A DNA stretch of 64,000 nucleotides from Prevotella sp. (GTDB lineage Bacteria; Bacteroidota; Bacteroidia; Bacteroidales; Bacteroidaceae), in NCBI GenBank assembly GCA_017410365.1, contig JAFQQY010000033.1, positions 62,001 to 126,000 on the forward strand, written 5' to 3'. Below, one piece after another: positions 5,298-43,611 of the stretch; positions within the stretch are counted from its first letter, which is position 1, and each line of letters starts with the position of its first letter. Below the pieces are notes generated by a model. The model was not told the DNA's origin and made no database searches. It saw nothing but the letters and a program-made list of their open reading frames with translations. The position numbers were made by a program, and so were the translations under genes.

Positions 5298-5328
5298 TAA
5301 GCATTAAGCATTAAAAATTAAGCATTAA
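5298..5328 (+). repeat. 7-bp-pitch array, word TAAGCAT
   Basis: Four contiguous heptamers, TAAGCAT, TAAGCAT, TAAAAAT and TAAGCAT, then a partial unit. They fill the whole leader between the -7 element and the ettA start codon at 5332. Confidence 0.7.
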
Positions 5329-5331
5329 AAT

Positions 5332-7029
5332 ATGGCAACAGTTGATGACAAGAAAATTATCTTCTCGATGGTGGGAGTGTCGAAGATTATCCCACAGAAT
5401 CAGAAGCAGATACTGAAGAACATCTATCTATCGTTCTTCTATGGTGCGAAAATAGGTATTATCGGTCTTAACGGCGCTGGTAAGTCAACGCTGATGAAGA
5501 TTATTGCCGGCATTGAGCAGCCCACACAGGGCGAGGTGGTATGGAGCCCGGGCTATACCGTTGGTTATCTGCCACAGGACCCGCCGCTCAATGAGGAGAA
5601 GACCGTTAAGGAAAACGTTATGGAAGGAGTGCAGCATGTTTACGATGCACTGAAAGAGTATGACGAGATTAACGTGAAGTTCGGTCTTGAGGAATACTAT
5701 GGCGACCCTGACAAGATGGACAAACTGATGCAGCGCCAGGCAGAGTTGCAGGACATCATCGACGCAACCGACGCTTGGAATATGGACTCTAAACTGGAAC
5801 GTGCCATGGACGCACTGCGCTGTCCTCCTGGAGATTGGGCGGTAACCAACCTCTCAGGTGGTGAGCGTCGCCGAGTGGCATTGTGCCGTCTGTTGCTTCA
5901 GAAACCAGATATGCTTCTGCTCGACGAGCCTACCAACCACCTAGATGCCGAGAGCATAGACTGGTTGGAGCAGCACTTGCAGCAGTATGAGGGAACGGTG
6001 ATTGCCGTAACTCACGACCGCTACTTCCTCGACGACGTGAGCGAGTGGATTCTCGAACTCGACCGTGGCGAGGGTATTCCGTGGAAGGGCAACTACTCTT
6101 CATGGCTTGACCAGAAGACAAAGCGCATGGAACAGGAGGAGAAGTCGGCATCTAAGCGTCGCAAGACTTTGGAGCGCGAACTTGAATGGGTGCGCATGGC
6201 ACCAAAGGCACGTCAGGCAAAGGGTAAGGCGCGTCTTAACTCTTACGAGCAGATGCTAAACCAAGAGCAGAAGGAGCGTGAGGAGAAACTTGAGATATTC
6301 ATCCCTAACGGACCGCGACTTGGCAACAAGGTAATTGAGGCTCAGGGCGTGCAGAAGGCTTTCGGTGAGAAGGTGCTTTTCAACAACCTCAACTTCATGC
6401 TTCCTCCTAACGGCATCGTGGGCGTTATCGGTCCTAACGGTGCAGGCAAGACTACGCTTTTCCGTCTCATCATGGGACTGGAACAGGCCGATGATGGCAA
6501 GTTTGAGGTGGGCGAGACCGTTAAACTTGCTTACGTTGACCAGCAGCATAAGGACATAGACCCAAAGAAAACCGTTTATGAGGTAATCTCTCAGGGTAAC
6601 GAGACAATACGCATGGGTGGCAGAGACATCAATGCCCGCGCATATATCTCACGCTTCAACTTCTCAGGAACCGACCAGAGCAAACTCTGCGAGGTGCTCT
6701 CTGGTGGTGAACGCAACCGCTTGCAACTAGCATTGGCATTGAAGCAGGAAGGCAACGTGCTGTTGCTCGACGAGCCTACCAATGATATCGACGTGAACAC
6801 TCTGCGTGCCCTTGAAGAGGGTCTTGAGGCTTTTGCCGGTTGTGCCGTGGTCATCAGTCACGACCGCTGGTTCCTCGATCGTATTTGTACCCACATCCTT
6901 GCCTTTGAAGGCAATGGCGAAGTGTTCTATTTCGAGGGCAGCTACTCTGAGTATGAAATCAACAAGGCGCGCCGCCTTGGCAACGAAGAAATAAAGAAAG
7001 GCCGCTATCGCAAGTTGATGGAAGATTGA
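5332..7029 (+). CDS. ettA: Energy-dependent translational throttle protein EttA (ABC-F)
   Basis: 565 residues, normal for EttA. A soluble ATPase with two ABC cassettes that binds the ribosomal E site and gates elongation by energy state. Cassette 1 has GLNGAGKST, LSGGERRRVA and LLLDEPTNHLD. A linker rich in basic and acidic residues follows (about 255-320, the P-site interaction motif region). Cassette 2 has GPNGAGKTT, LSGGERNRLQL and LLLDEPTNDID. No membrane segments are present. It is transcribed alone from the promoter at 5285-5292, convergent with mscS. The C-terminus RKLMED is typical of the family. Confidence 0.96.
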   Translation: MATVDDKKIIFSMVGVSKIIPQNQKQILKNIYLSFFYGAKIGIIGLNGAGKSTLMKIIAGIEQPTQGEVVWSPGYTVGYLPQDPPLNEEKTVKENVMEGVQHVYDALKEYDEINVKFGLEEYYGDPDKMDKLMQRQAELQDIIDATDAWNMDSKLERAMDALRCPPGDWAVTNLSGGERRRVALCRLLLQKPDMLLLDEPTNHLDAESIDWLEQHLQQYEGTVIAVTHDRYFLDDVSEWILELDRGEGIPWKGNYSSWLDQKTKRMEQEEKSASKRRKTLERELEWVRMAPKARQAKGKARLNSYEQMLNQEQKEREEKLEIFIPNGPRLGNKVIEAQGVQKAFGEKVLFNNLNFMLPPNGIVGVIGPNGAGKTTLFRLIMGLEQADDGKFEVGETVKLAYVDQQHKDIDPKKTVYEVISQGNETIRMGGRDINARAYISRFNFSGTDQSKLCEVLSGGERNRLQLALALKQEGNVLLLDEPTNDIDVNTLRALEEGLEAFAGCAVVISHDRWFLDRICTHILAFEGNGEVFYFEGSYSEYEINKARRLGNEEIKKGRYRKLMED

Positions 7030-7038
7030 TTTGAGACG

Positions 7039-7140
7039 GTGAGGTTATGAGGTAATAAGGACGTGAATTATGCGCCAGTTTAGGTTATAACCTTACAACC
7101 TCCAACCTTACAACCTTATAACCTCATAACCTTATAATTA
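7039..7140. repeat. 8-bp-pitch array, word AACCTTAY, with an inverted copy
   Basis: Five octamers of the type AACCTTAC, AACCTTAT or AACCTCAT plus one heptamer lie at 7089-7135, directly against the mscS stop. At 7039-7060 the same word occurs in inverted orientation (GAGGTTATGAGGT). The two halves could pair, so the array may serve as the transcription end for convergent ettA and mscS. No U-tract terminator is otherwise visible here. Confidence 0.65.
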
Positions 7141-7986
7141 AGCATTTGCCTCTCCCTGATGAACCACAATCTGTGGATAAGGGAATGAGATGCCACGCTC
7201 GTTGAATGTGGTGTAGATGGCTTGGTTGGTCTGGAAATGCACAGTCCAGTAATCGCTCGCCTTCACCCACACACGCACGGTGATATCAACGCTATTGTCT
7301 GATAATTTGCCCAGTTCGATGAATGGGGCAGGAGTCTTCATTATACGTTCATCGGCTTCGAGTATCTCTCGTATAACACTTTCTACATACTTGTAATCTG
7401 CACCATATTCTATACTTACTGTGAAGTCGAGACGGCGTTCGTCCTTATGGTTGTAGTTGACGCAAATAGCATTGCTCATGGTTCCGTTTGGAGCATAAAC
7501 CACCTTGTTGTCTGGTGTAACAAGCACGGTGTGGAATATCTGTATCTCCTGAACAGTGCCAGAAGCGCCAGTGGTCGATTCGATATAGTCGCCAACCTTG
7601 TATGGACGGAAGGCAAGGATTATAAGGCCGCCGGCAAAATTCTGCAATTGGCCTGACAATGCCATGCCGATGGCCATGCCGGCAGAAGCGAGCAGGGCGG
7701 CAAAACCTGTGAGTTCAATGCCCAGTTTTCCGATGACAGCCAGTGCGAGCATTACCATCAAGATAATGTTGACTGTGTTCTTAAGAAACATTTGCACGCC
7801 TATTTCAACCTTTCGCTTTTCTAGAATCTTTGCGAACAATTTGTTTGCCCACTTTACGAGTAACCTACCAATAATGTAAATGATTACGGCGCCAAGTATG
7901 CGGCTACCCACGTCAACTCCCGTGTCAATAAGTTTTGTCAGGAGTTCGTTGAATTGAGTACTGATGTTTGATGTCATTAAAATCAT
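7138..7986 (-). CDS. mscS: Small-conductance mechanosensitive channel, MscS family
   Basis: 282 residues, the length of classical MscS. Three N-terminal membrane helices are seen at about residues 17-45, 62-88 and 93-125; the third has the pore pattern of alternating Gly and Ala (ASAGMAIGMALSGQLQNFAGG). The soluble part has the family blocks FRPYKVGDYIE and VYAPNGTMSNA. It opens on membrane tension to release solutes during osmotic downshock. Starts at 7986 (MILM) and 7977 are both possible. It follows the MATE gene by 13 bases on the same strand and is probably co-transcribed with it. Confidence 0.93.
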   Translation of the reverse strand: MILMTSNISTQFNELLTKLIDTGVDVGSRILGAVIIYIIGRLLVKWANKLFAKILEKRKVEIGVQMFLKNTVNIILMVMLALAVIGKLGIELTGFAALLASAGMAIGMALSGQLQNFAGGLIILAFRPYKVGDYIESTTGASGTVQEIQIFHTVLVTPDNKVVYAPNGTMSNAICVNYNHKDERRLDFTVSIEYGADYKYVESVIREILEADERIMKTPAPFIELGKLSDNSVDITVRVWVKASDYWTVHFQTNQAIYTTFNERGISFPYPQIVVHQGEANA

Positions 7987-7999
7987 AAAAATACTTGTT

Positions 8000-9349
8000 T
8001 TATCCTGTTATTTTAATTTCGCTTACTTTCTTAACAAATCCCTTTGATGCCCATTTCATTGAGCGCCAGCGGTAGATGAAGATGATTCCGCGGATGTTCT
8101 CGTCGAGGGCAAAACTAATCCACATGCCTATCAAACCATACCCCCAATGGATGCCGAGCAGATAGCTGAAGCCTACGCTCACTAACCACTGCACAATCAC
8201 TCCTACATAGAACTGATAGTTCACATCGCCCGTTGCCCTAAGAGCCTGCGTCGCCCAGATGTTTATAGCACGACCAATCTCCAATGCCACTTCTATCCAG
8301 AGAATTATTATGCCCATCTCTATGATGTTACGATTGTCGGTAAGCCACTCCAGTCCATGCACGCCAAAGATGGCAAGCAGCAAGGCTAGTATTACCGATA
8401 CGATAATAGCCAACCGGCGGGTGTAGCACCCCAACAGATAGGCAGCATGCACCTTCCCTTCGCCCACCAGATGCCCAATGAGTATGGCTCCGCCTTGACC
8501 GACGGCAATGGAAAAGAGATAGACAAAGAACACCATGTTCCAACAATATGTCCGCGTGGCAAGAGCTTCATTGCCCAAGATGTTTATCAAGAAGGTGATT
8601 GCCACTTGCGAACCGCAGTAACTTATCTCTTCGCCGGCTGCCGGCATTCCAATCTTTAGCAAGTTCTTCAGTTCCACCCATGGGAACGGACGGAACAAGC
8701 AAAGCGGGAACGACGGAATATGCTTGCGAAAGAGGATGATGAAGAGAATAATCATACTCACGCCACGGGATATGCTGGTGGAGATAGCTGCCCCCTCAAC
8801 ACCCATTGCCGGCATACCGAACTTACCGAATATTAGGGTGTAGTTGCCTATAATGTTGAGTATGTTTACAACCAGTGTCACCATCATTGGGTATATCACC
8901 TTGTCAGCACTGCGCAACGATGCCGATATGGCAAGCGAGATGGCTTGGAAGAAAGCAAAAGCACCCACTATACGCATATAGCTTACACCTTCGCCCATCA
9001 GTTCAGGGCGCAGTCCCATAGTCTGCAACATCAAAGTACAACCGAAATACAGCAAGGCACTGACAACAAAGCCTGTGACGGTGTTCAACGCTATTGCCAC
9101 ACCTGTGGCTTGCACCATGCGCTCCTTAAGTCCTGCTCCGAGGTATTGGGCACAAAGAACTGTTGTTCCGAAACTGATTACCTGAAAAACAAGCACGGCA
9201 AGGTTTACCAACTGATTGACAACCCCAACGGCTGCCACGGCATTGTCTGAATGCTGGCTAAGCATCATCGTATCGACAACGCCGAGCATCATCACAAGCG
9301 CCGTTTCTATGAAAATTGGCAACACAAGTTTGCTAAGCTTACTTTTCAT
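8000..9349 (-). CDS. MATE family multidrug/toxin exporter
   Basis: 449 residues with twelve hydrophobic segments in two halves, normal for the family. The N-terminus shows the family pattern VLPIFIETALVMMLGVVDTMMLSQHSDNAVAAVG (in pieces: PIFIET, GVVDTMML, VAAVGV). The second half has GMPAAGEEISYCGSQ. It should export cationic or planar drugs with sodium or protons at the inner membrane; the substrate cannot be read from sequence. A -7 element at 9381-9388 drives it, and mscS follows. Confidence 0.9.
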   Translation of the reverse strand: MKSKLSKLVLPIFIETALVMMLGVVDTMMLSQHSDNAVAAVGVVNQLVNLAVLVFQVISFGTTVLCAQYLGAGLKERMVQATGVAIALNTVTGFVVSALLYFGCTLMLQTMGLRPELMGEGVSYMRIVGAFAFFQAISLAISASLRSADKVIYPMMVTLVVNILNIIGNYTLIFGKFGMPAMGVEGAAISTSISRGVSMIILFIILFRKHIPSFPLCLFRPFPWVELKNLLKIGMPAAGEEISYCGSQVAITFLINILGNEALATRTYCWNMVFFVYLFSIAVGQGGAILIGHLVGEGKVHAAYLLGCYTRRLAIIVSVILALLLAIFGVHGLEWLTDNRNIIEMGIIILWIEVALEIGRAINIWATQALRATGDVNYQFYVGVIVQWLVSVGFSYLLGIHWGYGLIGMWISFALDENIRGIIFIYRWRSMKWASKGFVKKVSEIKITG

Positions 9350-9380
9350 GATTATTTAGTTGACGACCTGAAAACGGGTG

Positions 9381-9388
9381 CAAAGATA
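9381..9388 (-). promoter_or_regulatory. Bacteroidetes -7 element TATCTTTG for the MATE gene
   Basis: TATCTTTG on the minus strand, 31 bases before the MATE start. It is only two bases beyond the terminator stem of the upstream susD gene. Confidence 0.65.
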
Positions 9389-9390
9389 AT

Positions 9391-9420: not shown

Positions 9421-9442
9421 ATTGTAATTATTAATACTTGAA

Positions 9443-15130: not shown

Positions 15131-15193
15131 GGTATACGCCGTATATACCATCGGTATACGCCGTGTATACCAAAAGTATACAGGCAGTATACC
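15131..15193. repeat. 11/22-bp-pitch palindromic array, word GTATAC
   Basis: TATAC occurs six times at exactly 11-bp steps (15133, 15144, 15155, 15166, 15177, 15188). Read in pairs these form three 19-bp inverted repeats, the first being GGTATACGCCGTATATACC, separated by 3-bp spacers at a 22-bp pitch. The third unit is the most diverged. It could be a cluster of operators for susC or a member of the locus-specific repeat class. Confidence 0.85.
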
Positions 15194-15201
15194 AAAATTA
15201 A

Positions 15202-15726: not shown

Positions 15727-15743
15727 AATTCTTTTTGTTTTTA

Positions 15744-15780
15744 AGTTGACGGGGTGACGAGTAATCGAGTAAACAAGTTG
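15744..15780. repeat. 8-bp-pitch array, degenerate GTTGAC word
   Basis: GTTGACGG, GGTGACGA, GTAATCGA, GTAAACAA and GTTG follow at an exact 8-bp pitch. It is a decayed relative of the GTTGAC arrays inside the GH78 gene. Confidence 0.6.
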
Positions 15781-15836
15781 TTTGTTATAAAACTCTTATC
15801 CCTCATCAGTTATTTATTATCAAACGTTTGATATGG

Positions 15837-15948: not shown

Positions 15949-18201
15949 TTAATATTCAAATGTACATTCAACACCTGACATTATCTCGTGTTCCTTGTCA
16001 TTGATAATAAGCTTGCCCTTACCATATGGGGAACGAATACAGATGCTTTCACGGTCAACACGTATGCAAATCGGACCATGAGGTGTCGGCACCTTGCCTT
16101 CCATCCATTCCAGATCGCCAAGGACAGGCTTAATGACGTACTCTTCATAACCAGGTTTGGTTGGCTGTACGCCGAGGTAGTATTTGCCCAACAAGTATAT
16201 CGGACTTGCTCCCCATGCATGGCAAAGGCTCTTGCCGTAAGGGCGACCATACATCGTGAGGTGCTGGGTGCCGGTTTCTTCTGGATTATACTTTTCCCAA
16301 AAGCTGGTCGCTCCCTCGCGAAGCATTCCGCCCCAGTAGTCACGCATCTCCTTGAGCACATCTGTCTGCATGCCCATCTGGCATAATGCTTCGAGTTCGT
16401 AGAAACGCATATATGGGGTAGTAATGGCTGGAATATCGGCGTTGAGCATTACCGACTGCATCACTTTTTGCTTGTCGTCACCTGCCAGACAATCGTAGAT
16501 GATAGCAAACATATTTGGGAATTTCGTTATCTGCTCGTTCATCTCGCCGTCCTCAATGGCATGCTTGAAAGCCTGCTTCTGCTCGTTCCAGAATGTTGGC
16601 TTCAGTTTGTTGCGCAATGCCTCCTCCAGTTCGGTATATTTCTTCGCATCGGCGGCGTATTCCTCTATGGTGATACTGCCCTGTGGCGGTTGTGCAAGCG
16701 GATTGTCGCGGAGTACGGTAGCACACATCTTCATTGTTTCGAGCGACTTGCACAAGAGTATCTGTTCAAAGCACAGTGTACCACGCTTGTGCATCGGGAA
16801 ATCTACCCAATCCACGAACACCCAGTCGTCAGGTTTCCCCTCTGCCATACCATCCTTGTTGGTTCTTCCAAGCACATACTGCATCATTGTCTGCATGCGT
16901 GGATATATCTCGCGCACGAAGGCGATGTCGCCGGTGTAGATGTAGAAGTCATAAACCGACTTAAACCAGTAGAACGTATAGTCCATGATGGTATTTATGT
17001 GGGCCGTCACCGGGTCTTTGCCTCTTAGTTGGCGTATGGTTCGGCGCACGCAGTCGCTATCGAAGCGAAGATAATAGTTCATCAGATACGATTGTATGGC
17101 ATCGCCCGACCATGTCCAACGGTCTCGCTTAATGCCATCGACAAAGAACTCTCGCGTTGTCAAGTCCATTGTATATGCCGACACCCTCCATATATTATTT
17201 AGCAACGGGTCGCTGCATTTGAACGAACCGCTCTTCTTATTGTCATACGGAGAATACTCATAATCCATGTTGACTGTTGCAAAACGCACATTACCTTCAG
17301 TCTTGATGCAGACAAAACGGAATGCCTTAGAACCAATATCGTTAGTTGACGAGTTGACAAGTTGACGAGTTGACAAGCTATTTGCATTCCTGTCATTCTT
17401 GCCTACTTTGGAGTGGCGGGGGATGGTTATCACATCCAGCGTTTCGCAATGTTCAAAGTCGAGAGCCTCTTCCTTGCTTTCACCATAATATATATATATT
17501 ATACCGCTGCCTTTGATGCCAATCAGATTAAGATAGCCAAACGTTTCCTTGCCAAAGTCGAACAGACGACCATCGCTTACCATTGTCTCAACCACAGGTT
17601 GCTGTCGTCGTGTCTTTAGTTTGTATATCGAAGGGCACTGGTTTGGCGAATTGAAGTTCCAGCTTGCTGCAGGGACGTATATTCCTGAACCGTGAGCCAC
17701 TCCATTCTCGTCAATCCAAATCTTGTCTTCGTATGTGGCGAGCCATGTTGAGTCGGTTTTTATTATTTCGCCACTTATATATAAAGCCGGCGGGGTTTCC
17801 GGATTCCACACTTTCAGATTCAACTTGTGCTCACCTGCCGGTATGGTGAATGTTTCCGGCATGCCGAACTGCAGTTTGCCGTCGAGCATCAGGTTAAATG
17901 CTCCCTCCGTTCTTATCGTAATCGTCTCTTCTTTTTCGAGTGAGAAGGCTTTTGAGAACTCCACCGTCTGCCAGTGGCTGTCCTGTTTCCAGAATGGCGG
18001 AAACATTGCCCCACGTTCAGTACGCCTGTTGTTAAAGCGATTGCCCAGCCAAATCTCAAAGTCGCCAGGGTACCATATCCATAAAGCCTCACCCCCAGCC
18101 CCTCTCCCATAGAGAGGAGAGTGATTGGCATTCGGCTTGTCAACTAACTCGTCAACTTGCGTACTCGTCAACTTGTCAACTTTATTAATATCCTTCCCCA
18201 T
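15949..18201 (-). CDS. Cytoplasmic or periplasmic GH78 alpha-L-rhamnosidase with repeat-derived insertions
   Basis: 750 residues without a signal peptide. After the leader, the protein proper begins ALWIWYPGDFEIWLGN, a typical GH78 opening. The (alpha/alpha)6 catalytic domain carries EFFVDGIKRDRWTWSGDA near residue 350, and HLTMYGRPYGKSLCHAWGASP late. It should release L-rhamnose from imported rhamnosides. The start at 18201 overlaps the MFS gene by 17 bases and has AGGAG just upstream; no later start exists before the conserved domain. Residues 1-40 are therefore encoded mostly by a GTTGAC array (18136-18184) and a GC-rich dispersed element (18086-18121). A second GTTGAC array adds about residues 275-286 (LSTRQLVNSST). 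The frame survives all three. Confidence 0.88.
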   Translation of the reverse strand: MGKDINKVDKLTSTQVDELVDKPNANHSPLYGRGAGGEALWIWYPGDFEIWLGNRFNNRRTERGAMFPPFWKQDSHWQTVEFSKAFSLEKEETITIRTEGAFNLMLDGKLQFGMPETFTIPAGEHKLNLKVWNPETPPALYISGEIIKTDSTWLATYEDKIWIDENGVAHGSGIYVPAASWNFNSPNQCPSIYKLKTRRQQPVVETMVSDGRLFDFGKETFGYLNLIGIKGSGIIYIYYGESKEEALDFEHCETLDVITIPRHSKVGKNDRNANSLSTRQLVNSSTNDIGSKAFRFVCIKTEGNVRFATVNMDYEYSPYDNKKSGSFKCSDPLLNNIWRVSAYTMDLTTREFFVDGIKRDRWTWSGDAIQSYLMNYYLRFDSDCVRRTIRQLRGKDPVTAHINTIMDYTFYWFKSVYDFYIYTGDIAFVREIYPRMQTMMQYVLGRTNKDGMAEGKPDDWVFVDWVDFPMHKRGTLCFEQILLCKSLETMKMCATVLRDNPLAQPPQGSITIEEYAADAKKYTELEEALRNKLKPTFWNEQKQAFKHAIEDGEMNEQITKFPNMFAIIYDCLAGDDKQKVMQSVMLNADIPAITTPYMRFYELEALCQMGMQTDVLKEMRDYWGGMLREGATSFWEKYNPEETGTQHLTMYGRPYGKSLCHAWGASPIYLLGKYYLGVQPTKPGYEEYVIKPVLGDLEWMEGKVPTPHGPICIRVDRESICIRSPYGKGKLIINDKEHEIMSGVECTFEY
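17345..17377. repeat. 8-bp-pitch GTTGAC array inside the GH78 coding sequence
   Basis: Four contiguous octamers GTTGACGA, GTTGACAA, GTTGACGA and GTTGACAA, translated on the minus strand as part of a loop between conserved GH78 blocks. Confidence 0.85.
18086..18121. repeat. GC-rich dispersed element inside the GH78 coding sequence
   Basis: The sequence starts CCTCACCCCCAGCCCCTCTC and continues with an inverted segment (AGAGAGGAGAG). It encodes residues SPLYGRGAGGEA of GH78. It resembles the elements at 40459-40485, 41521-41550 and 60866-60895. Confidence 0.7.
18136..18184. repeat. 8-bp-pitch GTTGAC array at the GH78 N-terminus
   Basis: On the minus strand GTTGACAA, GTTGACGA, a diverged GTACGCAA, GTTGACGA, a GTTA remnant and GTTGACAA. 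It encodes VDKLTSTQVDELVDK and lies just after the stop codon of the MFS gene. Confidence 0.8.
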
Positions 18202-19552: not shown

Positions 19553-19600
19553 AGTTTTATTTAGCTATTTCGTTTTTAGTTATTTTGTTGTTTAGGAGGT

Positions 19601-19680
19601 TCTAGGAAAACCTAGGAAATTCTAGGCTGTCCTAGATTACCCTACGTTTTCTTAGGCAATCCTAGGTTTTCCTAGACTTA
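19601..19680. repeat. 10-bp-pitch CCTAGG array
   Basis: Eight contiguous decamers, each starting YCTAGG or a close variant: TCTAGG, CCTAGG, TCTAGG, CCTAGA, CCTACG, CTTAGG, CCTAGG, CCTAGA. The four-base spacers differ from unit to unit (AAAA, AAAT, CTGT, TTAC, TTTT, CAAT, TTTT, CTTA). It lies between the outer-membrane protein stop and the MFS start, inside the presumed operon. Confidence 0.9.
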
Positions 19681-20525: not shown

Positions 20526-21917
20526 TTGGTTGAAAGAAATGTAGAACCTGGTGGTAACATCATCGATATCAAGCACGTGTCTAAATGGTTCGGAGACAAG
20601 CAAGTGCTGGATGATGTGAGTTTGAGTATCAAGAAGGGAGAGTTTGTAACAATCCTTGGTCCGTCAGGATGTGGGAAGACAACGCTCTTGCGTATTCTTG
20701 CTGGTTTTGAAATGGCTACTGACGGCGAAGTTCTGTTAGAAGGTTCCGACATAACGCAGACGCCTCCACATCAACGCCCTATGAATACGGTGTTTCAACG
20801 TTATGCCCTCTTCCCCCATCTAAATGTTTACGACAATATCGCTTTTGGACTTAAACTGAAGAAGACCAAGGCGGGAGTGATTGAGGAAAAAGTAAAACGT
20901 GCCCTGAAGATGGTAGGATTGACAGATTACGAACATCGAGATGTTAACTCTTTGTCTGGCGGACAGCAACAGCGTGTGGCTATAGCCCGTGCTATAGTCA
21001 ACCAACCTCAGGTACTATTGCTTGACGAGCCGCTTGCTGCATTAGATCTGAAAATGCGCAAGGACATGCAAATGGAACTAAAGGAAATGCATAAGACATT
21101 GGGCATAACTTTTATTTACGTAACCCACGATCAAGAAGAGGCACTTACACTTAGCGACACCATCGTGGTGATGAGTGAAGGTGTTATACAACAGATTGGT
21201 ACACCTACAGATATTTACAATGAACCGGAAAATTGCTTTGTTGCCGATTTTATAGGAGAGAGCAATATCCTAAACGGAACTATGATTGATGATCGCCTCG
21301 TTCACTTTATGAACACAGAGTTCAAGTGTGTTGATGAAGGCTTTGGCAAGAACACCCCTGTTGATGTCGTTATTAGGCCTGAGGACATATACATCATGCC
21401 GCCTACGGAAAGTGGCATGCTTCACGGCAAGGTTGTATCGTGCATATTCAAAGGCGTGCACTATGAAATGACCGTGCTCACCAACGACGGTTATGAACTG
21501 ATGATACAAGATTACAATGCCTTTGAACCTGAATCTGAAGTCAGCCTCATCATAAAACCTTCTGATATTCATGTAATGAAAAAGGAACGCGTCTGCAATA
21601 CTTTTGAGGCTACAGTGGTTGACGATACACATATCGACATGTTAGACACGACATTCGAATGTCTGCCTCACGGCTTGCCTGCAGGCACATCGGTAAAAGC
21701 AGAAGTGGATTTCAACAAGATTGACCTTACTGACGACAAAGAAGACGGAGCTCTTGAAGGCGACGTGCGTCTCATTTTGTATAAGGGCAATCATTATCAT
21801 CTCACCATTGTAACCGACGACGACGATTACATCTATGTAGACACAAACGATGTCTGGGATGATGGCGATATGGTTGGAATCAATATATTGCCGGAAGATA
21901 TAAGAATTAAGAGTTAA
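20526..21917 (+). CDS. potA: Spermidine/putrescine ABC transporter ATPase PotA
   Basis: 463 residues, about 90 more than E. coli PotA. It powers polyamine import. The ABC domain has GPSGCGKTT, the Q-loop, [15 protein letters not shown] and [12 protein letters not shown], then the switch His in YVTHDQEEA. After residue 270 the C-terminus contains two similar TOBE-like units, each with HYEM or HYHL plus 'V.T.DxYELMIQD'-type blocks and each ending in a PEDI or PSDI motif. The start is TTG at 20526: an in-frame stop lies 24 bases upstream and no ATG is available before the first beta-strand. The last codons merge into the 7-bp array leading to potB. Confidence 0.95.
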
Positions 21918-22018
21918 GAGTTAGGAGTTAGGAATTACGAATTCTGAGTTGTAGTTTTAGCATTACGAATTTTGAATTACTAATTAAGTATTGAGCATTA
22001 CGAATTAAGCATAAAATA
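21903..22018 (+). repeat. 7-bp-pitch array of 16 heptamers between potA and potB
   Basis: Starting in the last codons of potA and ending at the potB start codon, the DNA divides into heptamers with no phase break: AGAATTA, AGAGTTA, AGAGTTA, GGAGTTA, GGAATTA, CGAATTC and so on to AGCATTA, CGAATTA, AGCATAA. Consensus is about NGAATTA; positions 1, 3 and 4 vary most. Confidence 0.9.
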
Positions 22019-22804
22019 ATGAAACGGTTCTTTTCAAAACGCGGCACGTGGTCGATGCCCTACGTTGTGTTTCTTATGTTTTTTGTTGTGTTGCCTCTGA
22101 TTCTTATCGGAGTTTACGCTTTTATGGACAACAACGGTAATTTCACTATTGCCAACTTCGTGAAACTTATTGAGCAACCTGAGGCACTCAACACATTCGT
22201 CTATTCTGTCGACATTGCAGTCATAACAACATTCCTATGCATATTGTTAGGCTATCCAGCTGCATATATACTGAGCAACAGCGAGTTTAACCGTTCAAAC
22301 ACATTGGTACTGCTGTTCATTCTTCCTATGTGGGTAAACATTCTTATCCGCACTCTTGCCACAGTTTCGCTTTTCGATATTACCGGCATTCCACTTGGAG
22401 AGGGCGCACTTCTCTTTGGTCTGACCTACGACTTCCTGCCTTTCATGATTTATCCTATCTATAATACAATGATGAAAATTGACAAAAGCCTCATAGAGGC
22501 GGCTCAGGACCTCGGCGCCAACCGCTTCCGTGTCTTCCAGAAGGTTATCTTGCCGCTTTCTATGCCTGGTGTAATTAGTGGCATCATGATGGTATTCCTA
22601 CCTACAATCTCTACTTTTGCCATATCAGAGTTGTTAACAATGAACGACATCCGCCTCTTCGGCTCCATCATACAGGAGAATATAATGCTAAGCGATACGA
22701 TGAACTATGGCGCAGCCCTATCGCTCATCATGCTATTGGTGATTGGCTTCACCAGCCTTTTCAGCAGTGATGACGAAGAACAGGTTAGCCAGGGAATTAT
22801 TTAG
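22019..22804 (+). CDS. potB: Spermidine/putrescine ABC transporter permease PotB
   Basis: 261 residues with six predicted helices. The EAA loop that contacts the ATPase is EAAQDLGANRFRVFQKVILP. The N-terminus (WSMPYVVFLMFFVVLPLILI) is a typical PotB/PotH opening. It forms the inner-membrane channel with PotC. The only gap in the operon larger than 20 bases is the array before this gene. Confidence 0.95.
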   Translation: MKRFFSKRGTWSMPYVVFLMFFVVLPLILIGVYAFMDNNGNFTIANFVKLIEQPEALNTFVYSVDIAVITTFLCILLGYPAAYILSNSEFNRSNTLVLLFILPMWVNILIRTLATVSLFDITGIPLGEGALLFGLTYDFLPFMIYPIYNTMMKIDKSLIEAAQDLGANRFRVFQKVILPLSMPGVISGIMMVFLPTISTFAISELLTMNDIRLFGSIIQENIMLSDTMNYGAALSLIMLLVIGFTSLFSSDDEEQVSQGII

Positions 22805-27055: not shown

Positions 27056-27985
27056 GTGAAGAATCTTGACGAAACGTTTATGCGTAGATGCCTGCAACTG
27101 GCTAGTTGCGGCAGACAAAACGCCAAGCCCAACCCTATGGTTGGGGCTGTCATTGTACATGATGGCAAAATCATCGGCGAAGGGTATCACGTGCGCTGCG
27201 GCGAGGGTCATGCAGAAGTGAATGCTTTTGCTTCTGTGCGTCCAGAAGACGAAGGTTTGCTCTGCAATTCAACTATTTACGTAAGCCTAGAACCTTGTTC
27301 GCACTACGGCAAGACTCCACCATGCGCCGAACTTATAATAAAAAAAGGCGTTAAGAGAGTTGTGGTTGGATGCATCGACCCTTTTGCCAAGGTGCAAGGC
27401 AGAGGCATCAAGATGATAGAAGATGCCGGCATAGAGGTAACAGTAGGCATACTGCAAAAGGAATGCGAACAACTGAACAAGCGTTTCTTTACGTTCCACC
27501 GTGAGCATCGCCCTTACATAATACTGAAATGGGCACAGACGGCTAATGGATATATTGACAACTATTATAAACCGCTTGCCATTTCTACACCATTCACTCA
27601 GATGCTGTCGCACAAGATGCGTGCCGAAGAAGACGCCATCCTCGTGGGTAGAGTGACTGACGAGCGAGAGCATCCACAACTGACAGTGCGCCATTGGAGC
27701 GGTCCCAATCCAAAGCGCCTGGTGCTTACAGGCAAAGAATCGCTGGCCGACCTCATGAATGAGCTATACAACAACGGCATCCAATCGTTAATTGTAGAAG
27801 GCGGTGCGCATACTCACCAAAGCTTTCTCGATGCCTGTTTGTGGGATGAGATTAGAGTAGAAACAGCCCCTATAACGGTATATGGCGGAACGAAAGCGCC
27901 TTCGTTGCCAACAAACGCCAAAGTTGTATCATCTGAGCATTATGATGATAACGTCATAAGATGGTTTGAAAGATTGAAGGATTGA
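27056..27985 (+). CDS. ribD: Bifunctional riboflavin biosynthesis deaminase/reductase RibD
   Basis: 309 residues, shorter than the usual 350-370. The deaminase half has the zinc site His52-Ala-Glu54 with Cys81 and Cys90 in SLEPCSHYGKTPPC, plus NPMVGAVIV. The reductase half has ILKWAQTANGYID, DAILVGRVTD and VEGGAHTHQSFL; the deficit is in this half. It converts the first pyrimidine intermediate of riboflavin synthesis in two steps. I use GTG at 27056; ATG at 27080 is the alternative and would trim eight residues. Its last codons (WFERLKD) are written in the 8-bp repeat word that fills the gap to greA. Confidence 0.92.
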   Translation: MKNLDETFMRRCLQLASCGRQNAKPNPMVGAVIVHDGKIIGEGYHVRCGEGHAEVNAFASVRPEDEGLLCNSTIYVSLEPCSHYGKTPPCAELIIKKGVKRVVVGCIDPFAKVQGRGIKMIEDAGIEVTVGILQKECEQLNKRFFTFHREHRPYIILKWAQTANGYIDNYYKPLAISTPFTQMLSHKMRAEEDAILVGRVTDEREHPQLTVRHWSGPNPKRLVLTGKESLADLMNELYNNGIQSLIVEGGAHTHQSFLDACLWDEIRVETAPITVYGGTKAPSLPTNAKVVSSEHYDDNVIRWFERLKD

Positions 27986-28110
27986 AAAGTTGAAGGATTG
28001 AAGAGTTGAAAGATTGAAGAGTTGAAAGATTGAAGAGTTGAAGACTGCAAAGCTGATGAGCGAAGGCAAATAATTGAAGGATTGAGAGTTGAAAGATTGA
28101 AGAAAGAGAA
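27963..28110 (+). repeat. 8-bp-pitch array, word RRNTTGAA, from the ribD 3' end to greA
   Basis: Ten contiguous octamers ending TTGAA (27963-28042): GGTTTGAA, AGATTGAA, GGATTGAA, AAGTTGAA, GGATTGAA, GAGTTGAA, AGATTGAA, GAGTTGAA, AGATTGAA, GAGTTGAA. After a 30-base interruption holding the 19-bp element, further copies run to the greA start. The first three units are ribD codons or include its stop. Confidence 0.88.
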
Positions 28111-40455: not shown

Positions 40456-40458
40456 AAT

Positions 40459-40485
40459 GCCTCCCCAACCCCTCCTTGGAGGGGC
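40459..40485. repeat. GC-rich dispersed hairpin element
   Basis: Begins GCCTCCCCAACCCCTCCTTG and ends GAGGGGC; CCCCTCC pairs with GGAGGGG. It sits just after the S9 peptidase stop and may act in transcription ending. Confidence 0.6.
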
Positions 40486-40627
40486 TATACTTTCTTAGAA
40501 GTCAAAGGAAATTATACTTTCTTAGAAGTTAAAGGGAGTTAAAGGAAGTTATCACTTCGCTTTGCTCGTTGAGGAGTTAAAGGACATATGCTTTATGTGC
40601 AAGCAACTCATCAACTCATCAACTTAA
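40486..40627 (+). repeat. Composite word array upstream of the 40640 gene
   Basis: Two near-identical 25-base copies beginning TATACTTTCTTAGAAGT (40486 and 40513), running into 10-bp-pitch AGTTAAAGGG, AGTTAAAGGA, AGTTATCACT (40527-40556). Three 8-bp units CAACTCAT, CAACTCAT and CAACTTAA follow at 40604-40627, close to the next start codon. Confidence 0.65.
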
Positions 40628-40639
40628 TATTAAACTATC

Positions 40640-41173
40640 ATGCAAGAATTTGAAAATAAACTGTTGAAAGACTTACATCAATATCTTATTGCCATGGGCA
40701 AGGTGGACGAGAGAATGCCCGAATGTCCGGATGTTGAGGACAAATGGGAACAGATTGTTCAGTCGTATATTGCCGATGGCATTAGGGAGTTTGCCGACTA
40801 TCCAACCGTATCGCTCGGTTGGATGATGTATCTTGGCATGGCGGTGGCTAAGTTCTGGGATGCAGAATGGGAGATATACTCAAAGATTGAGGACCTGTAT
40901 TTGTATATACGCGACAAGCGAGGCTACGACTGCATGGACGAATATGTTCGCGAGGAGGTGCTGCTGCTTGAGGGCGACGACTATGCCGCATTGGAAAAGC
41001 TTGTCGGCGAATGTGCTTCGCGCGTTCATAATGCCTTGCTCCACCAGCATCTCGAACCAGGCACCAAAGAGGCGTTCAACGGTTATGTCGTATGTCTGCA
41101 TCAGTTGTACCTCATGGGTGCTGCCGTACAGCTGAAACGCATGGGGTATCACATGACAAAGATGGATGTCTGA
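40640..41173 (+). CDS. Conserved-looking protein of unknown function
   Basis: 177 residues, soluble, mostly helical, acidic, with no signal peptide. I do not recognise the family. Features seen: LHQYLIAMGKVDERMPECPDVEDKW (in part), the aromatic-rich SLGWMMYLGMAVAKFWDAEWEIY, and HQLYLMGAAVQLKRMGYHM at the end. Codon use is like neighbouring genes and the frame overlaps the next gene's start, so I take it as a real gene in a two-gene unit. The leader is repeat DNA (40486-40627). Confidence 0.75.
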   Translation: MQEFENKLLKDLHQYLIAMGKVDERMPECPDVEDKWEQIVQSYIADGIREFADYPTVSLGWMMYLGMAVAKFWDAEWEIYSKIEDLYLYIRDKRGYDCMDEYVREEVLLLEGDDYAALEKLVGECASRVHNALLHQHLEPGTKEAFNGYVVCLHQLYLMGAAVQLKRMGYHMTKMDV

Positions 41174-41513
41174 TATGACACTGCGCCAACTGCTTGCCTC
41201 TGTCGATGCAGAGAAATATAAAAACCATCCGCTCTTTCAGCAACTCTTGAGCGTAAGACCCGAATTCGGGGAGGCCAGAAGAATTGCTGTAAGACAGCAG
41301 GATGGTTTCTTGTCTGTCACTAATGTTCACCTCGGTTCATTGGGCGACATCGTTTCTTATCCCATAGATGTCGAAGACGGCATCTGTATTTCCAACGACG
41401 ATTTGCTTTGTGCCATTCTCCATGAACTGTCACGCAACGGCTTTAGCGATGGCGACAATGCCGACTTCTGGAACGGAATGACTGATTTGCAAAAGGCGAA
41501 GTTGCTGAGATGA
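41166..41513 (+). CDS. Small protein of unknown function, coupled to the preceding gene
   Basis: 115 residues. The start at 41166 overlaps the upstream stop by eight bases; ATG at 41175 is the alternative and leaves one base between the genes. The product begins MTLRQLLASVDAEKYKNHP and contains SYPIDVEDGICISNDDLLCAILHEL and FWNGMTDLQKAKLL. No signal, membrane helix or motif is recognised. The overlap suggests translational coupling and a possible physical partnership with the 177-residue protein. Confidence 0.7.
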   Translation: MSDMTLRQLLASVDAEKYKNHPLFQQLLSVRPEFGEARRIAVRQQDGFLSVTNVHLGSLGDIVSYPIDVEDGICISNDDLLCAILHELSRNGFSDGDNADFWNGMTDLQKAKLLR

Positions 41514-41520
41514 GCGATAG

Positions 41521-41550
41521 GCCCCCTCCTAACCTCCCCCTTGGGGGAGG
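41521..41550. repeat. GC-rich dispersed hairpin element
   Basis: Begins GCCCCCTCCTAACCTCCCCC and ends TTGGGGGAGG. It matches the element inside the ComM remnant (60866-60895) at 27 of 30 positions. Confidence 0.75.
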
Positions 41551-41556
41551 AATGCA

Positions 41557-41600
41557 GAAGAAGATAGAAGAAGATAGAGGGAGATAGAAGAAGATAAAAG
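41557..41600 (+). repeat. 10-bp-pitch array, word GAAGAAGATA
   Basis: Four contiguous decamers GAAGAAGATA, GAAGAAGATA, GAGGGAGATA and GAAGAAGATA, followed by AAAG. Confidence 0.75.
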
Positions 41601-41733
41601 ACATTTGCGTGTCAAGCATACGTCTACCCTCCTGCACTCCTTAAATTTCCGTTCTGGCGGATTTGAAATCCGACCGCATTGAATAGAAGCATTTGTAATG
41701 CGAAAAACACTACCAATCTGTCCCTACATACAA

Positions 41734-41818
41734 AATACCTTAAATCCCCGAATCCTTAGAACAAAGTCTGTCTCTATGTCAAAATAATCCCTTAAATCCT
41801 TAATTCCTTGAATCCTTA
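41734..41818. repeat. 8-bp-pitch array, word AATCCTTA, in two blocks
   Basis: Block 1 (41734-41758): AATACCTTA, AATCCCCG, AATCCTTA. Block 2 (41786-41818): AATCCCTTA, AATCCTTA, ATTCCTTG, AATCCTTA. Each block is followed by a similar AAGTCTGTCTCT/AAGTCTATCTTT stretch, so the whole unit of about 50 bases is duplicated imperfectly. Confidence 0.7.
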
Positions 41819-41866
41819 GAATTAAAAGTCTATCTTTCTGTACTGAACAAAAATCCCAAGAAATCC

Positions 41867-42907
41867 CTATTCAGCATGATGCGCAGCCGAAACGGCAGCA
41901 TGGATGTTCTCGATAGGAGCCTCAGATACAGTACACTCGGCACCAATCATCAGTCTGCCCTTAGGACCATCGGCAATAGCTTTCTTCACCACAGCCTTCA
42001 CGTCATCAACTGTACCGGAGATAATCTCCTTATGACGGTCAAGACCGCCGAGCACAGGACGGTTGAACAGTTTCTCACCGTCGGTAACAGTAAACGGAGT
42101 TCCGTTAAGAACAAGCGGCGTGTTTACTATGTCGCCAGGGTAATCGGTATAGCGGGTCAGGTCGTCGTAAGTACCTTCCCAGTCGCAGATGTGGAGAATG
42201 GTAAGCTTGGCATCCTTCTGACAGAGATTCATTATCCTCAGGTCGAAAGGCTTTATTTGCTCTTCAAAGAAACCAGGGATGCTGTAATACTTCATCTCGC
42301 CACCCTGAGTAGTCATGTAGAAACCTTCTACGCCAATCTCCTTGCATGACTTTACGAACCACTCCAGTGCGTCGGCATAATAACCAAGCACGCGCTTTAA
42401 GTCAGCAGGGCGCTCAACGGCAGCCTTGGCTATCACTTCGTCGCCAAGCGACTGGCGTGCCACCTGATATGGCGAGTAAACGGTAGGAAGGATATACACG
42501 TCCTTGCCCACATTATTATATAGTTCCTTCACCACCTCGAACGTAGGGCGGTAATAGTCTTCTGGCAGTGGTGCGATGCTGTCCCATGTTTCTTGCTTGT
42601 CCAGTTCCTTAATCTTTGCCACTCGCTGTTCGAACTGCACCTTCAATACATCGGCGTTAGTCTGCAGCAGATAGTAGAGATGACTCTTCACGGCACCTTC
42701 GCCCACCTTAGAGTCCTTGCCGGGGAAATGGATGAAGAATGCTGCCGGCACATACGACTCGTCGAGAGTGCCTGCCACAAAGGCATCCATAATCTCCTTC
42801 TTGTTTGTTGGGAACCCTTTCTTTTCTGCATTACCTGAACAAGAAAACATCACTAATCCTGCCATAGCAAAGGCAAGACATTTCGATAAAATACTAAATT
42901 TACTCAT
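41867..42907 (-). CDS. Lipoprotein with a uroporphyrinogen decarboxylase/cobalamin-methyltransferase-like fold
   Basis: 346 residues. The signal sequence ends LVMFSC, giving lipidated Cys23, then SGNAEKK. The rest matches the UROD superfamily: TNADVLKVQFEQRV, EWFVKSCKEIGVEGFYMTTQGGE, LTILHICDWEG, and the closing LGGLDRHKEIISG, KGRLMIGAECTVSEAPIENIHA, which parallel the 'HiCG' and 'p.g..Il..gc.v....p.eN' motifs. Known members are cytoplasmic and act on porphyrins or methylated corrinoid donors. The arginines and aspartates of true HemE are not evident, so decarboxylase activity is doubtful. A -7 element TATATTTG lies at 42940-42947. A surface or periplasmic location for this fold is unusual. 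Confidence 0.8.
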   Translation of the reverse strand: MSKFSILSKCLAFAMAGLVMFSCSGNAEKKGFPTNKKEIMDAFVAGTLDESYVPAAFFIHFPGKDSKVGEGAVKSHLYYLLQTNADVLKVQFEQRVAKIKELDKQETWDSIAPLPEDYYRPTFEVVKELYNNVGKDVYILPTVYSPYQVARQSLGDEVIAKAAVERPADLKRVLGYYADALEWFVKSCKEIGVEGFYMTTQGGEMKYYSIPGFFEEQIKPFDLRIMNLCQKDAKLTILHICDWEGTYDDLTRYTDYPGDIVNTPLVLNGTPFTVTDGEKLFNRPVLGGLDRHKEIISGTVDDVKAVVKKAIADGPKGRLMIGAECTVSEAPIENIHAAVSAAHHAE

Positions 42908-42939
42908 AGTTATTTTGGTTTGTTTAAGATTAGTCAGTG

Positions 42940-42947
42940 CAAATATA
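42940..42947 (-). promoter_or_regulatory. Bacteroidetes -7 element TATATTTG for the UroD-like gene
   Basis: TATATTTG on the minus strand, 32 bases before the start codon. Confidence 0.6.
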
Positions 42948-43022
42948 CAAAGATTTATTGATACTCGTTATATTATTTCATGATAATTTTAATGTATAGA
43001 TAAAAAGGTACAATATTCTACT

Positions 43023-43463
43023 TCACCAATCATACGTCTCTACATAACCGTCAAAATTCACTTCGCCAGTCCAACCTGCCTGACGGAAGAGGTCGCGCAC
43101 CTCATCCTGCATTGCCGGAGGAATAAGGCGTGTGCCATTGCGATACTCGAAGAAATAGGTACGGTTATATCTCGCTATAAGCGCAGCACGCACCCACTGC
43201 TCCACGCGTTTGGGCATGTCGTCGGTGAATATCTGCGTCATGCCTTTGGCGCATTTCACCTTCGTTGCAGGACGATAAAGCGGACATCTTTCTGTTGCCA
43301 CATTGTCATGATAAGGATTTACACTAACGCAAAACATCCTATTGCTAGGTATATGTTTGCCTATCTTCAAGCGCAAACACTGCTCACCAATGGGACAGTC
43401 TGCCATGTGGCACACCACATAGTCGCGCTCTATTTGCTGAATAAATAGTTCTTTGTCTGTCAT
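43023..43463 (-). CDS. Small cysteine-containing protein, DUF6078-like
   Basis: 146 residues from MTDKELFIQQIERDYVVC; the longer frame would begin upstream of the -7 element TATATTTG (43471-43478), which lies only seven bases before this ATG, so the message is nearly leaderless. Cysteines fall in C-x4-C-x5-C (VCHMADCPIGEQC) and later in ERCPLYRP and KVKCAKG, which suggests metal binding. The family name is from memory and the function is unknown. No signal peptide is present. Confidence 0.75.
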   Translation of the reverse strand: MTDKELFIQQIERDYVVCHMADCPIGEQCLRLKIGKHIPSNRMFCVSVNPYHDNVATERCPLYRPATKVKCAKGMTQIFTDDMPKRVEQWVRAALIARYNRTYFFEYRNGTRLIPPAMQDEVRDLFRQAGWTGEVNFDGYVETYDW

Positions 43464-43524
43464 AATACTGCAAATATACGTAAAAAGAACAAGAACAGCA
43501 AACAAATTCGCATCAAATTACATT

Positions 43525-43611
43525 AGTCCGAGGCGTTCGGACTACAAGTAAATGGCGCTCGGACTCACAGTCCGAACGTCACGGACTCAGAGTCCGAAGC
43601 TATTTCGGACT
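43525..43611. repeat. 22-bp-pitch palindromic array, word AGTCCG/CGGACT
   Basis: Four units start at 43525, 43547, 43569 and 43591, exactly 22 bp apart. Each is a 19-bp inverted repeat of two 6-bp arms around 7 bases, the first being AGTCCGAGGCGTTCGGACT, with 3-bp spacers ACA, CAC and CAG. The second unit has lost its left arm (AGTAAA) and the fourth has two extra bases. It lies between the chimeric esterase stop and the DUF6078-like promoter. Confidence 0.88.

What the first reader, a model, noticed from the sequence alone, without database searches (positions are those of the whole stretch)
5298..43611. Intergenic DNA organised as fixed-pitch arrays with a different word at each locus
Seen directly: at least eight intergenic regions consist of a short core word repeated at a constant pitch (7 bp at 5298 and 21903; 8 bp at 7089, 15744, 17345, 18136, 27963 and 41734; 10 bp at 19601 and 41557; 11/22 bp at 15131 and 43525). 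Core letters are conserved while the letters between cores vary, and phase is kept even where units are badly degraded. Simple replication slippage copies spacers as well as cores, so it does not readily explain this. Each locus uses its own word, which also argues against one dispersed transposable repeat. Inference: an unrecognised process makes or maintains these arrays, for instance templated synthesis, nucleoid-protein phasing, or selection for local transcription control. Similar word repeats occur in other Bacteroidales as far as I recall, but I know of no mechanism.
Basis: partly seen in the sequence, partly recalled or inferred. Interest (0 to 1): 0.8.

Follow-up and report, generated by a model that had tools for sequence, protein, structure and literature searches.

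The report
Intergenic word arrays in Prevotella-like bacteria
Between its genes this bacterium carries many short arrays in which one DNA word recurs at an exact spacing while the letters between the fixed ones drift; the arrays are real, belong to a few genome-wide word families, come and go between related species, and their maker or reader is unknown.

Summary
Intergenic DNA of this genome has a large excess of identity at lags 8 and 7 (z 20.4 and 12.9 against dinucleotide shuffles), and in five word families the same letters stay fixed and the same letters vary at separate loci. One claim is wrong: words are not one per locus. A genome uses a few degenerate words many times, and a word common in one congener can be absent from another. 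Added here: arrays point, the G-rich strand running inward from gene edges (103 of 139 in two test sets); an array can be present in one species and missing between the same genes in a close one (116 versus 4 bp); a CTAG class, which includes position 19601, has exact 9 or 10 bp pitch, near-random middle spacer letters, and occurs in 10 of 20 genomes, never in the other 10. Inward polarity and inverted pairs are already published for heptamer arrays of Xanthomonas and Nostoc (PMC4692102), so this is a many-word variant of a known, unexplained kind. Best mechanism, at moderate confidence: spread by copying and duplication, with cores held by word-specific binding factors. No factor was found.

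The parts
5298..5328 (+). 7-bp array TAAGCAT filling the leader just before the start codon of the ORF at 5332 (a near copy precedes another gene, L190 710-742)
7038..7060 (+). G-rich partner (GGTGAGGTTATGAGGTAATAAGG) of the C-rich array at 7085, an inverted arrangement between convergent genes
   Evidence: sequence; by eye
7085..7137 (+). 8-bp array AACCTTAT/AACCTCAT, C-rich on +, ending at the 3' end of the minus-strand ORF 7138-7986
15131..15197 (.). GTATAC palindrome array, pitch 11 bp; same arrangement at 2 further loci in the 847-kb sample (L175 17645, L210 7414)
15744..15783 (+). degraded 8-bp AGTNNACN array (weak)
   Evidence: by eye; not reported by TRF or the scan
17344..17377 (+). 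8-bp AGTTGACR array inside ORF 15949-18201(-), in a loop of variable length in orthologues
18146..18182 (-). 8-bp AGTTGACR array (C-rich on +) in the N-terminal stretch of ORF 15949-18201(-) that does not match orthologues; probably true intergenic DNA
19600..19675 (.). CTAG array, pitch 10 bp, variable spacers
21901..22009 (+). 7-bp TTANGAR array, overlapping the last bases of ORF 20526-21917 and reaching nearly to ORF 22019-22804
27966..28101 (+). 8-bp ATTGAARR array, interrupted by a linker with GCAAAGC
40525..40624 (+). G-rich AGTTAAAGG array (10 bp), linker, C-rich CAACTCAT array (8 bp)
41556..41601 (+). 10-bp AGAAGAAGAT array, part of a composite module repeated elsewhere in the genome
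41734..41818 (+). 8-bp CCTTAAAT/CCTTGAAT array, interrupted; only 41785-41818 is reported by the scans
43525..43611 (.). AGTCCGA/TCGGACT inverted cores, spacing about 22 bp; the paired core occurs at 6 further loci (8 matches) of the sample

Best explanation
The arrays are families of intergenic sequence, each built on one degenerate word. SHOWN: a genome uses a few words many times; an array or a pair of arrays can be present in one species and missing between the same genes in a close relative; composite modules are repeated at many loci; some letters and the pitch are kept while other letters vary. INFERRED: arrays arise at gene borders, grow partly in two-unit (14 to 16 bp) steps and are copied from locus to locus by recombination or template switching between shared words; fixed letters and pitch are then kept because a factor specific to that word binds several units side by side (one protein per unit, as ribbon-helix-helix proteins do on 7-bp heptads), so that spacer letters are free to drift. 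A genome's set of words would then reflect the set of factors it carries. This is best supported for the CTAG class and weaker for the G-rich 7- and 8-bp words.
For: CTAG arrays: distances between CTAGs in the G000 sample peak at 10 (57), 20 (46), 30 (33) and 40 bp, lesser 9 (15), none at 11-16; in G422 and G423 only 9, 18 and 27, one pair at 7 aside; no peak in G003/G042. Middle spacer columns reach 1.8 to 1.9 bits in G000 and G422/G423. Triples in 10 of 20 genomes (4 to 120), none in the other 10, reversed control 0-1. Outside 9/10-bp pairs CTAG is at 0.02 to 0.12 of expectation in 4 of 5 array-bearing samples, 0.29 and 0.31 in two without. At the one CTAG locus found in both G422 and G423 six aligned cores match and all five spacers between them differ, in 11 of 25 letters (counted by hand). 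G-rich words: same variable columns at separate loci, P<0.0002 in 5 of 5 families; AGTNNACN arrays in 11 of 26 genomes, 4 to 226 hits, control 0-1. Gain or loss: intergenic lengths 116 versus 4 bp, 47 versus 5, 139 versus 58, 65 versus 30. Copying: a module of 10-bp array, linker and 8-bp array shares 12-mers found in up to 14 of 430 intergenic regions. Two-unit steps. Precedent: an RHH ParB binds arrays of 7-10 contiguous degenerate 7-bp repeats, one dimer per repeat, weakly to a single one (passages of PMC9499535).
Against: No factor was identified, and no gene presence/absence scan was run. Reproducible variable columns could also come from copying arrays that already varied. In a scan without preset cores, neighbouring units are more alike than shuffled ones in 80 species (43 up, 21 down, p=0.005) and neutral in G000, as slippage predicts. 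Arrays are very numerous: 195 of pitch 7, 8, 10 or 11 in 847 kb, 57 of them mostly inside called ORFs, too many for ordinary operators. Only one CTAG locus could be compared between species. The outer CTAG spacer letters are not free (0.26 to 1.16 bits in G000 and G422/G423). In G010 CTAG is not cleared (0.49 of expectation outside pairs) and spacers are similar within arrays (0.61 against 0.36 between arrays). CTAG counts grade from 4 to 120 rather than being simply high or nil. The authors on Xanthomonas and Nostoc found no role in gene regulation (PMC4692102, section read).
Confidence: 0.4

Rival explanations
1. No function: replication slippage, in one- and two-unit steps, makes tandem copies; template switching or gene conversion makes inverted and distant copies; shared words serve as the microhomology that spreads them. 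Fixed letters reflect recent common descent of the copies and the loss of structure-prone words.
For: Neighbouring units more alike than shuffled in 80 species; dispersed composite modules; same-word pairs in one intergenic region, inverted 11 and direct 12 of 62 adjacent pairs in G000 against 4.9 expected, inverted 11 and direct 6 of 25 in 80 species against 1.1; strand-asymmetric words, z=-4.2 and -3.7; presence/absence between close species; G010 CTAG spacers alike within arrays; one array region 178 of 180 identical in a 93% species pair.
Against: Exact CTAG cores and pitch with near-random middle spacer letters; the same columns variable at separate loci; word use that is present or absent among congeners, with species-specific pitch; inward polarity.
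Confidence: 0.33
2. Arrays act at the RNA or transcription level: paired arrays form hairpins between genes, or the C-rich strand gives Rho a loading site that stops transcription entering a gene from either side.
For: C-rich strand with only 5.4% and 4.5% G; polarity at both 3' and 5' gene edges; arrays hug 3' ends, 50 of 118 within 5 bp against 14 expected; one array in L079 sits where L081 has a terminator-like hairpin (by eye).
Against: Folding z of 59 array-bearing intergenic regions not different from 70 others (means -2.87 and -2.04, p=0.15); YC enrichment z=2.4 in G000 but 0.1 in 80 species; most adjacent pairs are not complementary; the same polarity is reported in Nostoc, and cyanobacteria lack Rho (recalled).
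Confidence: 0.14
3. Arrays are parts of miniature mobile elements moved by a transposase (REPIN- or MITE-like).
For: Presence/absence between the same genes; dispersed modules; BrickBuilt, a MITE holding a minisatellite, is known in Porphyromonas (PMC4596501).
Against: No Y1 transposase detected in G000, 89% complete; no target-site duplication seen by eye at the sites aligned; ends and words differ from site to site.
Confidence: 0.08
4. Templated end synthesis: a telomerase-like enzyme adds word repeats to the 3' ends of broken DNA, and the ends are joined, leaving head-to-head arrays with the G-rich strand inward.
For: Inward polarity; G-arm first in 17 of 22 complementary pairs; bacterial RTs that write tandem repeats exist (DRT10, passages of PMC12632851); G000 encodes an RT whose second-best PADLOC match is UG17.
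Against: 8 of 14 array-rich genomes have no RVT_1 match while 9 of 11 genomes poor in TTANGAN have one (several genomes are incomplete and divergent RTs may be missed); 5 of 22 pairs run the other way; chromosomal insertion of DRT10 products was not seen in the passages I read.
Confidence: 0.04

Closest known systems
G-rich heptamer arrays of Xanthomonas (GGGANTN) and Nostoc (GGGGAYT), Rehm et al. 2015, PMC4692102 (sections 10 and 16 and passages read)
   [quoted passage not shown] here many words per genome, pitches of 7 to 11 bp, mostly without G-tracts.
TAACTGA heptamer arrays, MacGregor 2015, PMC4679880 (abstract, passages and section 12 read)
   Same: Heptamer arrays between genes, often next to a start codon, present in five Bacteroidetes, absent from the same gap in some close relatives.
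   Different: Direct repeats of a single heptamer; related heptamers rarely or never repeated in the genome chiefly studied.
BIME/REPIN elements and their Y1 (RAYT) transposases (passages of PMC6006769)
   Same: Mosaic intergenic repeats, inverted pairs, many copies.
   Different: REP units have a tetranucleotide-footed hairpin, which I did not search for here; no Y1 transposase detected in G000; units of 7-11 bp.
parS of plasmid pSM19035 with its RHH ParB (omega), PMC9499535 (passages read)
   Same: Contiguous degenerate 7-bp repeats; one protein dimer per repeat, low affinity for a single one.
   Different: A plasmid centromere with a known protein; six sites on one plasmid, not arrays all over a chromosome.
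BrickBuilt MITE of Porphyromonas gingivalis, PMC4596501 (abstract and passages read)
   Same: Tandem repeat inside a dispersed intergenic element of a Bacteroidales.
   Different: 23-bp unit without spacers, leader and tail, 19 copies in strain ATCC 33277.

Membership tests
Degenerate intergenic heptamer arrays (Xanthomonas/Nostoc type) | fixed and free positions within the repeat unit | tested here: met
   5 of 5 families (one of pitch 7, four of pitch 8)
Degenerate intergenic heptamer arrays (Xanthomonas/Nostoc type) | G-rich strand inward from gene edges, convergent inverted pairs | tested here: met
   a majority, not all
Degenerate intergenic heptamer arrays (Xanthomonas/Nostoc type) | G-tract units able to form a G-quadruplex | tested here: inconclusive
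   by eye most words listed lack GGG; no quadruplex search was run
REPIN/BIME with RAYT | Y1 transposase in the genome | tested here: not met
   0 matches in G000 (89% complete)
REPIN/BIME with RAYT | tetranucleotide-footed palindromic unit | not tested
   no such search was run
MITE | terminal inverted repeats with target-site duplication | tested here: inconclusive
   inverted arms at some sites, no duplication seen by eye at the sites aligned
Simple sequence repeats made by single-unit slippage | adjacent units more alike than distant ones | tested here: inconclusive
   met on average in 80 species, not in G000; reversed in fixed-core chains of G000; next-but-one favoured in G170 and G156
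Arrays written by a reverse transcriptase (DRT10/telomerase type) | an RT in every array-bearing genome | tested here: not met
   8 of 14 array-rich genomes without RVT_1; completeness 79-99% where told
RHH-type operator or centromere arrays | a protein that binds the repeats | not testable with these tools
   no binding data
All-frame translation stops | more stop codons than column-permuted arrays | tested here: not met
   z=0.7 and -0.6 on the G-rich strand (on the C-rich strand 5.8 in G000, 1.1 in 80 species)

The most novel reading that the evidence does not exclude
Bacteroidales genomes carry lineage-specific 'word systems': a trans-acting factor reads, and perhaps drives the spread of, one fixed-pitch core (CTAG at exactly 9 or 10 bp, GTATAC at 11, AGTNNAC at 8, TTANGA at 7), giving each species its own dialect of chromosomal binding arrays, a chromosome-wide organising or segregation code that is gained and lost between related species, with the core often cleared from the rest of the genome (CTAG outside pairs at 0.02 to 0.12 of expectation in 4 of 5 array-bearing samples, G010 being the exception at 0.49).
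Probability: 0.2. Interest if true: 0.85.

Novelty: new variant of a known kind. Interest (0 to 1): 0.62.

Why it matters
Such arrays were found in many, though not all, of the Bacteroidales sampled, and they contribute to the turnover of intergenic DNA between species. They show the same inward polarity and inverted pairing reported in two unrelated phyla, which asks for a common cause. The CTAG class makes the question testable: exact pitch, presence in some congeners and absence in others, and a usually rare core mean that comparing gene content between species should point to a reader or writer.

Tried and rejected
Stop codons in all frames: suggested by the words, rejected for the G-rich strand by a column-permutation null. 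RNA structure as the general cause: folding z not different. YC-rich Rho sites: inconsistent between the two sets. Reverse transcriptase or Y1 transposase as required writer. A rule that neighbouring units avoid being identical: seen in fixed-core chains, only suggestive in G170 (P=0.055), absent in G156 and not seen in the scan without preset cores; not claimed. Rfam (gathering thresholds) and tRNA scans of the window gave nothing. The genome collections hold one genome per species, and the nearest of 200 sampled congeners is 84% identical in the ABC-F gene, so gain, loss and change could be followed only between species. A cluster of CTAG arrays in G010 lies among what look like ordinary core genes, judged from ORF sequences by recall only. 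Searching six array words as text in the paper library found one unrelated paper; a search for CTAG arrays with Prevotella listed nothing relevant.
Full report
WHAT WAS CHECKED. The window is G000:C31:62001-126000 of a 3.28-Mb, 55-contig genome. The nearest named relatives of its ABC-F protein are Prevotella, up to 96% protein identity, so it is called Prevotella-like; the organism itself is not named. Gene borders are longest-first ORFs of at least 300 bases (360), not a trained gene caller, so start sites are rough.

THE ARRAYS ARE REAL. Autocorrelation of 220 intergenic segments (47,830 bases) against 20 dinucleotide shuffles gives z=20.4 at lag 8, 12.9 at lag 7, 9.0 at lag 21, 5.7 at lag 24 and 4.9 at lag 32. 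Lags 3 (13.1), 6 (8.5), 4 (7.9), 2 (6.9) and 9 (5.2) are raised too, some of which may be missed short genes. A scan of the same sample lists 79 arrays, 42 of pitch 8, 20 of 7, 10 of 10, 5 of 9 and 2 of 11. In the 80 species loci a stricter scan lists 91, of which 59 have pitch 7 and 17 pitch 8.

WORDS ARE GENOME-WIDE, NOT PRIVATE. The word at 21903 gives 88 three-unit hits in the genome against 27 for the reversed pattern; the word at 17345 gives 226 against 0; CTAG triples give 93 sites against 0. Long arrays give several overlapping hits. TTANGAN occurs in 38 of 60 genomes searched, 0 to 159 hits, and in the listed places relatives prefer different middle letters (the list is partial). AGTNNACN occurs in 11 of 26 genomes, CTAG triples in 10 of 20; I chose those genomes by hand, not at random. 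Longer composite modules recur: a 10-bp array, the linker ACATTTGCGTGTCAAGCATACGTCT and an 8-bp array share 12-mers found in up to 14 of 430 intergenic regions.

FIXED AND FREE LETTERS. Arrays of pitch 7 or 8 found without any preset word were assigned to five family words at 68% or better and aligned in phase. In all five the columns that vary are the same from locus to locus, P<0.0002 against shuffling columns within each array: AGTTGACG 43 loci, TTAGGAG 23, GGTTATGA 14, ATTGAAGG 16, AGGAGTGT 30. The column entropies are not used for this, because there the core was fixed by the search pattern. Copying arrays that already varied would also give shared columns, so this is not proof of selection.

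HOW UNITS ARE ORDERED. In chains with an exact core, lag-1 identity is below and lag-2 identity above the within-array shuffle in all five G-rich families of G000, by differing margins. In G170, from the 92 distinct triples among the 100 that one search listed (121 hits), next-but-one identity is 0.326 against 0.155 shuffled (none of 5000 shuffles as high) and adjacent identity 0.098 against 0.160 (P=0.055). In G156, from 44 distinct triples among 50 listed (93 hits), next-but-one is 0.295 against 0.151 (P=0.009) and adjacent 0.159 against 0.157. In arrays of four or more units found without preset words, lag-1 identity is neutral in G000 (47 up, 42 down) and raised in 80 species (43 up, 21 down, p=0.005). 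So two-unit steps are favoured in these families, and ordinary slippage is visible across species; the avoidance of identical neighbours is not general.

POLARITY AND INVERTED PAIRS. The pattern was noticed in the first sample (43 of 58), then tested by a rule written down beforehand: fresh stretches gave 49 of 66 (p=1e-4) and the 80 species 54 of 73 (p=5e-5). The arrays of the 80 species had been listed before the rule was written, so only the fresh stretches were unseen. Arrays with equal G and C were left out (2 of 60, 1 of 67, 1 of 74). With one vote per word the counts are 39 to 10 with 9 ties in G000 and 49 to 18 in the species. It holds at gene 3' edges (61 of 78) and 5' edges (42 of 61) in the two test sets together; among the smaller classes, convergent and divergent pairs in G000 are too few to tell. 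Intergenic DNA outside arrays leans the same way more weakly (216 of 355, 176 of 308, 569 of 1046 halves). Same-word pairs within one intergenic region exceed expectation: inverted 11 of 62 against 4.9 in G000 and 11 of 25 against 1.1 in 80 species; direct pairs exceed it too (12 and 6). The G-rich arm comes first in 17 of 22 inverted pairs. Words are more strand-asymmetric than random intergenic words of equal G+C (z -4.2 and -3.7).

TURNOVER. Between G422 and G423 (84% identity over 55 kb, one contig each) 29 intergenic regions could be paired. Seven with an array in either genome have mean identity 0.43, 22 without 0.68. Lengths for the seven are 47/5, 86/58, 65/30, 291/270, 116/4, 139/58 and 253/255. 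Four regions without a called array also differ strongly in length (83/26, 72/32, 173/29, 48/5), and two of these look weakly periodic by eye, so turnover is not special to arrays. The 116-base case starts right after a stop codon and holds an inverted pair. Gain or loss cannot be told apart. Downstream of the ABC-F gene the two species carry unrelated repeats from stop codon to next start; those of L079 were seen by eye, not called by the scan. In the pair G003/G042 (93.4% over 112 kb) one array pair is shared with 178 of 180 bases identical.

THE CTAG CLASS. In the G000 sample CTAG pairs lie 57 times at 10 bp, 15 at 9, and never at 11-16. In G422 and G423 they lie at 9, 18 and 27 bp, with one other pair at 7. 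G003 and G042 have no peak. Middle spacer columns reach 1.8 to 1.9 bits in G000 and G422/G423, but the outer ones are constrained (0.26 to 1.16); in G010 columns lie at 1.27 to 1.79 and in G108 at 1.16 to 1.60. Spacers are similar within arrays in G010 (0.61 against 0.36 between arrays) and somewhat in G000 (0.56 against 0.45), not in G108 or G422/G423. Outside 9/10-bp pairs CTAG is at 0.12 of expectation in G000, 0.06 in G422, 0.09 in G423, 0.02 in G108 and 0.49 in G010, against 0.31 and 0.29 in G003 and G042; the G010 and G108 stretches were chosen mostly for their arrays. In G010 many listed sites cluster at 1.60-1.70 Mb; in G108 two listed sites are on the large and the others on the small replicon (lists partial). 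At the one locus shared by G422 and G423 six aligned cores match and all five spacers differ, in 11 of 25 letters (counted by hand; the register is the aligner's). GTATAC behaves alike at 11 bp (8 pairs, and 6 at 22). A core kept at exact pitch while letters between cores approach randomness is hard to explain without something that recognises it.

MECHANISM. I commit to copying plus duplication for spread and growth, with word-specific binding factors holding core and pitch, at 0.4. The binding step is inferred; the precedent is an RHH protein on contiguous 7-bp repeats (passages of PMC9499535); MetJ on 8-bp boxes is recalled. The neutral rival is close behind at 0.33.

WRITERS LOOKED FOR. 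G000 has no Y1 transposase match and two RVT_1 matches. Among 25 genomes, 14 are array-rich, 17 or 40 (27 or more TTANGAN hits in 13; G022 by 205 hits of the reversed pattern) and 6 of these 14 have an RVT_1 match; of the 11 poor in TTANGAN 9 have one. Poor in that word does not mean poor in arrays: G010 is rich in CTAG arrays.

KNOWN WORK. Rehm et al. 2015 (PMC4692102; sections 10 and 16 and passages) describe Xanthomonas and Nostoc heptamer arrays with free positions, inverted convergent pairs in Xanthomonas, position near gene ends and the same strand preference, no role found. MacGregor 2015 (PMC4679880; abstract, passages and one section) describes TAACTGA arrays and gaps without them in close relatives. 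So polarity and pairing are not new as such. I found no description of multi-word arrays or CTAG arrays in Bacteroidales in the listings of searches of an open-licence library, which misses most subscription journals.

Noticed in passing
L233 (G000:C46:35482-36156) and L234 (G000:C31:12784-13356): Two reverse transcriptases in the genome; the first matches PADLOC RT_UG17 (DRT10) at 2e-35 after the generic RT model, and the group II maturase model below its cut-off.
   Followed up: partly
window 40460-40487, 41518-41553; L079 4412-4457: C-run/G-run palindromes (CCCCTCC...GGAGGGG) recur between genes; the one in L079 is followed by a T-run and has short matches elsewhere in G422 and G423.
   Followed up: no
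window 28040-28072; L171, L174, L176, L181 intergenic regions: Linkers between arrays often contain GCGAAGC or a close relative or its complement, and AAGCATACGTCT; d(GCGAAGC) is recalled as an unusually stable DNA mini-hairpin.
   Followed up: no
G108:C2 (708 kb) against G108:C1 (1.97 Mb): Of the CTAG sites listed for G108 only two are on the larger replicon.
   Followed up: no
L086; L031 19767-20824: Further arrays of pitch 9 and 11 with other words (GGTAACCG, CTCTAATCGAA) in other Bacteroidales.
   Followed up: no
window 17344-17377: An array in frame inside a conserved protein gene, at a loop of variable length in orthologues (SLSTRQLVNSST).
   Followed up: partly
G022: The reversed control pattern (NAGNATT) is itself abundant in G022 (205 hits), that is, another genome-specific 7-bp word.
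   Followed up: no
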